This document shows positions 22,639 through 23,199 of a DNA stretch of 64,000 bases, piece by piece. The DNA is taken from positions 62,001-126,000 of the forward strand of contig NZ_KE383816.1 of NCBI RefSeq assembly GCF_000422305.1, written 5' to 3'. The position numbers and the translations under genes are program-made. The notes beneath the pieces were generated by a model. It made no database searches. It saw only the letters and a program-made list of their open reading frames with translations, and was not told where the DNA came from. The number at the start of each line of letters is the position of its first letter. Position 1 is the stretch's first letter. Source of the DNA: Luteimonas mephitis DSM 12574. GTDB lineage: Bacteria; Pseudomonadota; Gammaproteobacteria; Xanthomonadales; Xanthomonadaceae.

Positions 22639-22647
22639 GCCAGGCCT

Positions 22648-22723
22648 GCAGGAGCTGCCTCAGCCGCGAGCTTCTCGAAAGGCCCGTCGACGAACAGAAG
22701 CTCGCGGCTGAAGCCGCTCCTAC
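22648..22723. repeat. Inverted REP pair, family 1
   Basis: The left arm at 22648-22673 is degenerate (GCAGGAGCTGCCTCAGCCGC then GAGCTT); the right arm at 22698-22723 is intact (AAGCTCGCGGCTGAAGCCGC then TCCTAC). It begins 9 bp after the exonuclease stop. Confidence 0.85.
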
Positions 22724-22816
22724 AAGGCGACTTTTAGTCGTGCTGTTGCTGTTGCCGTTGCAGTTGCAGTTGCTGCTGACCTTGATCTTGATCTTCCGGG
22801 CCCCCTCCGAAGCGGC

Positions 22817-23012
22817 GGAGCCGGCGGACAAGACCCGCAGGGCGCCGCACAGGGATGTGCGGCGTTTTCCGCAGGGGCAGGAAGCCCCTTCGGAAAATCC
22901 CGCCGGCTCCGCGGACCCGGTGCGCAACACCGGGCGCGCAGGCGGGGTGTGTTTCTTTGGGTCACGTTTCTTTGCACAAGCAAAGAAAGGTGACTCGCGC
23001 CGTCACGGCGCG
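22817..23012. ncRNA. Candidate structured RNA or mobile structured repeat: array of hairpins
   Basis: An 11-bp stem GGAGCCGGCGG/CCGCCGGCTCC (22817-22827 with 22900-22910) encloses two perfect hairpins: CGCCGCACA-GGGA-TGTGCGGCG (22843-22864, followed by TTTT) and TTTTCCG/CGGAAAA around GGGGC/GCCCC (22865-22897). Three more follow: CCCGGTG-CGCAA-CACCGGG (22916-22934), a 15-bp stem with one mismatch and loop ACAA (22961-22994, core TTTCTTTGC/GCAAAGAAA), and CGCGCCG-TCA-CGGCGCG (22996-23012). Similar TTTCTTTGG...AAGCAAAGAAA sequences are common in intergenic DNA of this group as I recall. Expression and strand are unknown. Confidence 0.5.
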
Positions 23013-23199
23013 AAAGCTCTTGATCCTGGCGATATCGGCCAAACTGCAGGCGGGTCAAGACCCGCGCTGCAGCCGGCGACGAGAGGCGCATCGGGGGCGT
23101 GTCCCCGACCTACGCCGACCATGCAAGCGGGATATTGCACCATTCGCCCCTGCCCGTGATGGCAACCCAGGCCCAACCCCGCCGCGGTAGGATCAGCGG

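What the first reader, a model, noticed from the sequence alone, without database searches (positions are those of the whole stretch)
22817..23012. Dense hairpin array, candidate structured RNA or mobile structured repeat
Six strong stems are packed in 196 bases. An 11-bp stem closes over two adjacent perfect hairpins, forming a three-way junction, followed by three more. The first inner hairpin is followed by TTTT like a terminator. The TTTCTTTGC/GCAAAGAAA hairpin resembles a sequence I recall in many xanthomonad intergenic regions, where small proteins have been called across it. No gene explains it. I know of no assigned function.
Basis: partly seen in the sequence, partly recalled or inferred. 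Interest (0 to 1): 0.6.

Follow-up and report, generated by a model that had tools for sequence, protein, structure and literature searches.

The report
Mobile hairpin repeat with CsrA-type loops
The hairpin cluster is one of about sixteen dispersed, apparently mobile copies of a structured RNA-like element whose two conserved hairpin loops look like docking sites for the global bacterial regulator CsrA/RsmA, and relatives of it are scattered through many gammaproteobacterial genomes.

Summary
In detail: the stretch folds far better than shuffles on either strand. The element (22797-23014) is a dispersed repeat with 16 full and 7 diverged copies in this genome. The site, between a 5'-3' exonuclease gene and a NUDIX gene, is empty in 29 of 29 congeners inspected (of 51). 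A covariance model hits 84 of 149 family genomes and 22 of 143 class genomes (own included). The core is two adjacent hairpins whose stems are rewritten between lineages while the loops stay C-A(N)GGA(N)-G, the high-affinity CsrA/RsmA target form. It is a diverged branch of Rfam's TwoAYGGAY motif (RF01731), already predicted in print to bind CsrA. Rfam's model finds nothing in this genome, and I show the motif to be the heart of a high-copy dispersed element (41-107 matches in four pseudomonad-like genomes). One-sided hexamer arrays at the 5' end and inverted pairs are further traits. CsrA binding, transcription and the means of spread are inferred. Against a simple 3'-UTR role: single elements between co-directional genes are antisense in 20 of 29 cases, and Pasteurellaceae relatives lack the GGA loops although they have csrA.

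The parts
22797..23014 (+). Full element core (218 nt), one of 16 full copies in this genome
   Evidence: R1 match 248.5 bits, E 5.1e-63 (the copy is one of those R1 was built from); 16-copy alignment with unrelated flanks
22741..22796 (+). Hexamer array (TTGCTG/TTGATC type) against the 5' end
   Evidence: Direct repeats; lag-6 identity >= 0.5 in the left flank of 34 of 73 own and same-family copies, right flank 2 of 73, background 51 of 3437
22801..22814 (+). 5' strand of outer stem P1
   Evidence: Consensus fold
22935..22950 (+). 3' strand of outer stem P1
   Evidence: Consensus fold
22815..22827 (+). 5' strand of the 13-bp stem P2 that closes over the two GGA hairpins
   Evidence: Perfect inverted repeat
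22900..22912 (+). 3' strand of P2
   Evidence: Perfect inverted repeat
22843..22864 (+). GGA hairpin H1; ACAGGGATGT at 22849-22858 = CsrA/RsmA-type hexaloop A-N-GGA-X closed by C-G with an A-U pair below
   Evidence: Sequence; GGA fixed in 16 of 16 copies while N takes all four letters
22865..22897 (+). GGA hairpin H2; CAGGAAG at 22878-22884 = pentaloop AGGAX
   Evidence: Sequence, fold; AGGA fixed in 16 of 16 copies; compensatory changes among own copies
22916..22934 (+). Hairpin H3 (CCCGGTG/CACCGGG)
   Evidence: GC/AU and UA/CG exchanges among own copies
22952..22959 (+). Unpaired first copy of TTTCTTTG, repeated in the next hairpin
   Evidence: Direct repeat D8
22961..22994 (+). TTTCTTTGC hairpin H4
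   Evidence: Inverted repeat I3; one pair near its base is C-G in 11 and U-A in 5 of 16 own copies
22995..23013 (+). Terminal hairpin H5
   Evidence: Inverted repeat I13; 8 of 8 pairs show a change on both sides across genera
23015..23026 (+). Short 3' border (AGCTCTTGATCC) resembling the hexamer units at the 5' end
   Evidence: Alignments, by eye
23040..23120 (+). Extra right-hand module seen beside only a few own copies (L002, L003, L007)
   Evidence: Alignment, by eye

Best explanation
It is a non-autonomous, dispersed genetic element whose + strand is an RNA that presents a rigid pair of CsrA/RsmA-binding hairpins: a diverged branch of the TwoAYGGAY kind. SHOWN: dispersed copies, a site empty in related species, a conserved architecture over many families, covarying stems, GGA loops of the CsrA form on one strand only, near-constant spacing. 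INFERRED: when a copy is transcribed, one CsrA/RsmA dimer clamps the two loops; many copies together act as a distributed decoy that buffers free CsrA/RsmA, or locally mark or stabilise the transcript that contains them. INFERRED: copies spread by an unidentified machinery acting in trans and are tolerated mainly in gaps without a promoter.
For: Repeat: 16 near-complete copies by BLAST and 23 double-hairpin hits at E <= 1e-6, the 16 plus 7 others. Insertion: gap 18-187 bp in 29 of 29 congeners printed, against 561 bp here; presence/absence at a Xanthomonas locus and a pseudomonad-like locus. Structure: 95.0% of cells paired against 76.1% in shuffles, 68 of 77 pairs with a change on both sides against 42 (58 distinct rows, alignment fitted to the model). 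Loops, with loci chosen only by the other (TTTCTTTGC) hairpin: 59 of 114 upstream segments hold a C-A(N)GGA(N)-G hairpin, 37 hold two or more, against 15 of 5675 background segments; permuted cores 0-1, antisense 0, downstream 1. Own copies, found by BLAST: GGA fixed in both loops in 16 of 16. A-U below the closing pair in 45 of 80 distinct hexaloop hairpins against 0-17% at the next four pairs; letter after GGA is U in 60 of 80. Spacing: 27-30 nt in all 139 of 206 rows that had two such hairpins 20-40 nt apart (overlapping loci counted more than once). G-U exceeds A-C in these stems, 16 to 3 and 24 to 5 (overlapping data). PMC4005645 (passages): ANGGAX hexaloop directly on a stem = high affinity. 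PMC4066749 (passages): one dimer bridges sites 10-63 nt apart. csrA in 12 of 14 element-bearing genomes. PMC4333381 (passages) predicted CsrA binding for TwoAYGGAY.
Against: No binding or transcript data. Single copies between co-directional genes are antisense to them in 20 of 29 cases, which does not fit simple read-through sponges. 55 of 114 segments lack the GGA hairpin at the threshold used: some are pseudomonad copies with 4-bp stems, but Pasteurellaceae, Hydrogenophilus and some Stenotrophomonas copies carry a TGTTTGAGCGNAGCGAGTTTG-like hairpin instead, and Pasteurella and Actinobacillus do have csrA. The 23-copy alignment (91.5% against 57.5% paired) is weaker than it looks, since its rows were picked for having the loops and at least 4 Watson-Crick pairs per stem; its count of pairs changed on both sides (17 of 19) is reached by 107 of 500 shuffles. 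In the 16 own copies alone the number of further pair types (23) is below the shuffles (27.6), and G-U against A-C over all stems is only 17 to 13 (hand count). H2 lacks the N of ANGGAX, which PMC4005645 rates lower. RsmU with all four GGA changed still bound RsmA (PMC7694677), so GGA is not the whole story. Single-stranded DNA recognition would also give one-strand loops and G-T over A-C. The transposing machinery was not found.
Confidence: 0.65

Rival explanations
1. A purely DNA-level mobile element: the hairpins are recognised as folded single strands by an unknown transposase or relaxase, and the GGA loops are its contact points; the likeness to CsrA sites is accidental.
For: Dispersed copies, presence/absence at sites, inverted pairs, one-sided hexamer arrays; antisense excess; subtypes without GGA loops; weak G-U/A-C asymmetry over all stems of the own copies (17 to 13).
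Against: The CsrA signature goes beyond GGA: A-U pair below the closing pair and mostly U after GGA. No transposase-like cluster was recognised among recurrent proteins of 124 loci, judged by eye from one example each.
Confidence: 0.21
2. A REP/REPIN or BIME-type repeat spread by a RAYT.
For: REP-like palindrome beside the window copy (22647-22724) and beside many of 17 copies aligned in G410; Y1_Tnp in 14 of 16 genomes.
Against: The core carries no GTAG-tagged short palindrome of its own (sequence); REP tags within 400 bp are at or modestly above background (own 4 of 16, other same-family 16 of 57, others 10 of 74, background 298 of 1995); G410 has 52 RF01731 matches at E <= 0.01 and no Y1_Tnp match, while G028 and G097, without an R1 match, have Y1_Tnp.
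Confidence: 0.07
3. A bidirectional transcription terminator or mRNA 3'-end stabiliser kept in gaps between convergent genes.
For: Strong hairpins; among 88 placed clusters 27 lie between convergent and only 6 between divergent genes.
Against: One terminator-like site in the region against 0.8 expected, and not at the reported TTTT; would not explain the GGA loops, their spacing or the dispersal; avoidance of promoters alone could explain the gap types, as PMC2718517 argues for other Pseudomonas repeats (passages).
Confidence: 0.07

Closest known systems
TwoAYGGAY RNA (Rfam RF01731, clan CL00106; Weinberg 2010 PMC2864571; CsrA prediction in PMC4333381)
   Same: Two adjacent hairpins with GGA loops inside an outer stem; 10 of 20 relatives scanned score above its gathering cut-off, and in six of these (L297, L301, L304, L308, L310, L311) the RF01731 match overlaps a match of the window-derived model R1 at E <= 1e-4
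   Different: RF01731 finds nothing in this genome, in G006 (genus of Xanthomonas) or in G043 at E <= 0.01, and only 2 weak matches in G029 of the same family; H2 here is a pentaloop; the element has further conserved parts (H3, TTTCTTTGC hairpin, terminal hairpin, hexamer array). Weinberg's table marks it probably RNA and probably not cis-regulatory; the passages I saw do not mention that it is a high-copy repeat
CsrB/CsrC/RsmX/Y/Z sponge RNAs
   Same: GGA hairpin loops of the CsrA/RsmA type; the best weak Rfam match of the window core in that clan is rsmX, 14.2-17.5 bits
   Different: Two loops per copy instead of many (recalled for the sponges), dispersed copies instead of one gene; rsmX cut-off is 56 bits
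RsmU of Xanthomonas campestris (PMC7694677)
   Same: GGA-bearing RNA from a 3' UTR that binds RsmA
   Different: Processed from one locus (comEA 3' UTR), 77-117 nt, reported as found only in Xanthomonas; I did not compare its sequence with the element
REP/REPIN and Pseudomonas R-family intergenic repeats (PMC2718517)
   Same: Dispersed intergenic repeats with hairpins that favour convergent gaps
   Different: Several have flanking inverted repeats, two of them shared with IS elements; no CsrA-type loops in the passages read. Whether any R family is this element was not tested

Membership tests
TwoAYGGAY (RF01731) | Score above Rfam gathering cut-off (43 bits) | tested here: not met
   0 matches in window; 0 in own genome at E <= 0.01
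TwoAYGGAY (RF01731) | Two adjacent hairpins both with AYGGAY hexaloops | tested here: inconclusive
   H1 is ANGGAX in 16 of 16 own copies (second letter T or C in 11 of 16; G in the window copy), H2 is AGGAX
TwoAYGGAY (RF01731) | Intermediates linking it to accepted members | tested here: met
   Six loci where RF01731 (above cut-off) and R1 (E <= 1e-4) overlap; these loci were found with R2, built from 23 diverse double hairpins
CsrA/RsmA-binding RNA | A(N)GGA(X) loop closed by C-G on a stem | tested here: met
CsrA/RsmA-binding RNA | Binds CsrA/RsmA in vitro or in vivo | not testable with these tools
   needs gel shift or CLIP-seq
CsrA/RsmA-binding RNA | Is transcribed | not testable with these tools
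   no RNA-seq at hand
REP/REPIN-RAYT | Tagged short palindrome with a RAYT in the genome | tested here: not met
   Core lacks the tag; G410 has 52 RF01731 matches without a Y1_Tnp match
MITE of a known IS | Terminal inverted repeats shared with a transposase gene, and target duplication | tested here: inconclusive
   No transposase-like cluster recognised by eye in 124 loci; no duplication visible at two compared sites, whose gaps had diverged
Protein-coding gene | Frame conserved over copies | tested here: not met
   Net indels not a multiple of 3 in 8 of 16 copies; 0 Pfam matches for four frames

The most novel reading that the evidence does not exclude
A selfish, high-copy mobile repeat has been recruited as, or is itself, a genome-wide distributed CsrA/RsmA buffer: tens to about a hundred copies per genome each offer one dimer clamp, so that copy number sets the free level of a global regulator, perhaps standing in for CsrB-type sponges where these are missing (as PMC7694677 reports for Xanthomonas).
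Probability: 0.3. Interest if true: 0.85.

Novelty: new variant of a known kind. Interest (0 to 1): 0.62.

Why it matters
TwoAYGGAY was published in 2010 without a function and has, in what I could search, only a computed CsrA prediction. These results suggest that it is the core of a family of dispersed, apparently mobile elements found in many gammaproteobacterial lineages, including branches that Rfam's model does not reach. If the loops bind CsrA/RsmA, the number of copies becomes a tunable buffer of a global regulator of metabolism, motility and virulence, which CLIP-seq and RNA-seq can test directly.

Tried and rejected
Terminator: one site, no excess over shuffles. Known RNA in the window: none at gathering score; permissive matches are mostly microRNA families on the neighbouring palindrome, and rsmX at 17.5 bits on the element. 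tRNA/tmRNA: none. Plasmid copies: no blastn match. Linked mobility gene: proteins of 124 loci clustered by BLAST; I looked at one example per cluster by eye and saw frames across the element and what look like common regulator and transporter domains, with no family search. RAYT: see rivals. A SINE-like origin with the hexamer array as a tail was considered (only at one end, A-rich on the minus strand); it was not tested: no clean target duplication was seen at two sites and truncated copies were not surveyed. Literature: ten searches; by their titles and abstract starts none of the papers listed describes this element in xanthomonads or calls TwoAYGGAY a repeat. The library holds open-licence papers only, so this is weak. 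The CsrA SELEX consensus RUACARGGAUGU is recalled, not seen in a call. One search aligned copies in mixed orientation and one search scanned one strand only; both were superseded.

Full report
WHAT IS THERE. The reported stretch is strongly structured on both strands, and the 16-copy consensus fold adds an outer stem. The element spans 22797-23014. It sits between a 5'-3' exonuclease gene (Pfam PF02739/PF01367, 21736-22638, +) and a NUDIX gene (PF00293, 23200-23757, +). Upstream lie a REP-like palindrome pair (22647-22724) and a hexamer array; downstream lies an extra module seen beside a few other copies.

REPEAT AND INSERTION. BLAST of the region against the own genome (3.42 Mb, 18 contigs; 40 of 96 candidates scored) gives 16 near-complete copies and ten partial or diverged ones. 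The covariance model R1, built from the 16, lists 15 and 16 in two searches, each time at its scoring cap, so it does not check the number. The double-hairpin model R2 (150 candidates scored) gives 23 hits at E <= 1e-6: the 16 and 7 others, six of which form three inverted pairs. Mean column identity of the 16 is 91%, and beyond two common borders the flanks are unrelated except for hexamer units. All 52 genomes of the genus match the region somewhere. In the 29 loci of other species whose gap I printed it measures about 18-187 bp without the element, against 561 bp here; the other 22 were not inspected. At a Xanthomonas-genus locus the element is present in five and absent in two of the seven stretches aligned; one of the five (G345) shares only the right flank there. 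In three of the five (G085, G341, G345) it carries an added block inside one hairpin and matched extra arms on both sides of the TTTCTTTGC hairpin, which keeps the pairing. At a locus of G410 the relative G658 (flanks 96% and 90% identical) lacks the element and has an unrelated palindrome there.

RANGE. R1 hits 84 of 149 genomes of the same family (38 of 54 genera; own included), with at most 15 scored per genome, and 22 of 143 genomes, one per genus, over the class (own included). Listed MAGs of other phyla gave no R1 match at E <= 1e-4 (which took L107-L195; L196-L230 were not given). R2 hits 31 of 299 genomes of the phylum. 'Pseudomonad-like' for family f145 is a guess from genome size and from the named Pseudomonas loci that carry the element. 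Plasmids gave nothing.

STRUCTURE. On 58 distinct rows 95.0% of cells pair (shuffles 76.1%), 68 of 77 pairs show a change on both sides (shuffles 42.3), in 735 cells (189.3) (that alignment is fitted to the model). In the 16 own copies the signal is smaller and mixed: 36 cells against 11.3, 7 pairs against 5.7 (116 of 500 shuffles reach it), further pair types 23 against 27.6. A MAFFT alignment of 23 diverse double hairpins gives 91.5% paired against 57.5% and a covariation score of 0.81 against 0.20. Its rows had been picked for the loops and for at least 4 Watson-Crick pairs per stem, so its invariant loops and part of its pairing are by construction; it shows that the stems are rewritten, not that the loops are kept.

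THE LOOPS. Two tests are free of that circle. First, in the 16 own copies found by BLAST, GGA is fixed in both loops while the letter before it in H1 takes all four states. Second, I took loci chosen only by the TTTCTTTGC hairpin. Of 114 full 200-nt upstream segments (15 short ones and near-duplicates dropped) 59 hold a C-A(N)GGA(N)-G hairpin with at least 5 Watson-Crick pairs and 37 hold two or more, mostly near 123 and 95 nt upstream. Background is 15 of 5675, permuted cores 0-1, the antisense form 0, downstream segments 1 in 104. Some of the 55 without it are pseudomonad copies whose stems have only 4 pairs; others belong to lineages with a different hairpin. With loops fixed by the search, the pair below the closing C-G is A-U in 45 of 80 distinct hexaloop hairpins, against 0-17% at the next four pairs, and the letter after GGA is U in 60 of 80; in 37 pentaloop hairpins A-U is 14 of 37. 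The two motifs start 27-30 nt apart in all 139 of 206 rows that had two within 20-40 nt, the range I allowed, with repeated loci. G-U beats A-C 16 to 3 in these stems (24 to 5 in an overlapping set), but only 17 to 13 over all stems of the own copies (hand count). This points weakly to the + strand and does not tell RNA from single-stranded DNA. PMC4005645 (passages) defines the high-affinity target as an ANGGAX hexaloop directly on a stem, lower if N is missing. PMC4066749 (passages) states that one dimer can bridge sites 10-63 nt apart.

LINK TO TWOAYGGAY. The window has no Rfam match at gathering score. Of 20 relatives scanned, 10 score above the RF01731 cut-off; in six of them the match overlaps an R1 match at E <= 1e-4. 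RF01731 finds 41, 52, 107 and 69 matches at E <= 0.01 in four pseudomonad-like genomes (G406, G410, G535, G629; at most 109 scored), none in the own genome, G006 or G043, and 2 weak ones in G029 of the same family. Weinberg 2010 marks TwoAYGGAY as probably RNA, probably not cis-regulatory (one passage). PMC4333381 predicted CsrA binding from motif matches, with validation left open (passages). So the CsrA idea is not new. New here, as far as the ten searches named in Tried and rejected go, are the unseen branch, the larger conserved architecture, the dispersed and apparently mobile nature and the hexamer arrays.

WHERE IT SITS. Of 88 placed clusters 55 lie between co-directional, 27 between convergent and 6 between divergent genes; 29 further clusters had no usable flank. 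Gene calls are from a simple codon model of mine and some loci are orthologous. Singles between co-directional genes are antisense in 20 and sense in 9. Divergent gaps are rare, but there is no sense preference, which tells against a plain 3'-UTR sponge. The 5' flank is hexamer-periodic in 34 of 73 own and same-family copies and 26 of 85 others, the 3' flank in 2 of 73 and 2 of 85, background 51 of 3437; I cannot explain this. REP tags within 400 bp: own 4 of 16, other same-family 16 of 57, others 10 of 74, background 298 of 1995. Inverted pairs are common, mostly with 3' ends facing in Xanthomonas and 5' ends facing in Pseudomonas, Solimonas and some other genera.

CSRA. csrA is found in 12 of 14 element-bearing genomes. 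It is not found in G231 (81% complete) or in the Hydrogenophilus MAG, whose copies lack GGA loops; Pasteurella and Actinobacillus have csrA and also lack GGA loops. PMC7694677 (abstract, sections 2.1, 2.3, 2.4, first part of 2.5, Discussion) reports no CsrB/RsmX/Y/Z homologue in Xanthomonas and one RsmA-binding RNA, RsmU, from a single locus; RsmU with its four GGA motifs changed still bound RsmA.

VERDICT. A diverged, dispersed and apparently mobile branch of the TwoAYGGAY kind, most likely a CsrA/RsmA-binding RNA element; binding, transcription and mobility mechanism are open.

Noticed in passing
22647-22724: A separate REP-like inverted pair (TGCAGGAGC...GCTCCTACA) lies just upstream of the hexamer array; similar REPs sit beside many of 17 copies aligned in G410.
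   Followed up: partly
L047, L048, L054; L316, L327, L329 (left flanks): Some copies carry long hexamer arrays at the 5' end, such as (GGCTCT)n in G410, whose unit differs from copy to copy; origin unknown.
   Followed up: partly
L264, L265, L266 (Xanthomonas-genus G085, G341, G345): An enlarged variant with about 90 extra bases inside the second GGA hairpin and matched arms added on both sides of the TTTCTTTGC hairpin: paired insertions that keep the fold.
   Followed up: partly
L148, L119, L186, L190, L147, L166, L191: A subtype in which the GGA hairpins are replaced by a TGTTTGAGCGNAGCGAGTTTG-like hairpin (Pasteurellaceae, Hydrogenophilus, some Stenotrophomonas partner copies).
   Followed up: partly
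G000 C2:372061/372412, C3:307055/307406, C1:518597/518948: Diverged copies in the own genome occur as three inverted pairs about 350 bp apart.
   Followed up: no
window 23040-23120: Right-hand module (GGGTCAAGACCCGC ... GGGGGCGTGTCCCCGACCTACG) shared with only a few own copies, apparently another dispersed repeat.
   Followed up: no
G000 C6:147155-150474: Three Y1_Tnp (RAYT-like) matches lie within 3.4 kb of each other.
   Followed up: no
L369 (G658, about 360-450): The site without the element in G658 holds another GTAGGATGG...CCATCCTAC palindrome where G410 has the element, hinting at an insertion hot spot after the stop codon.
   Followed up: no
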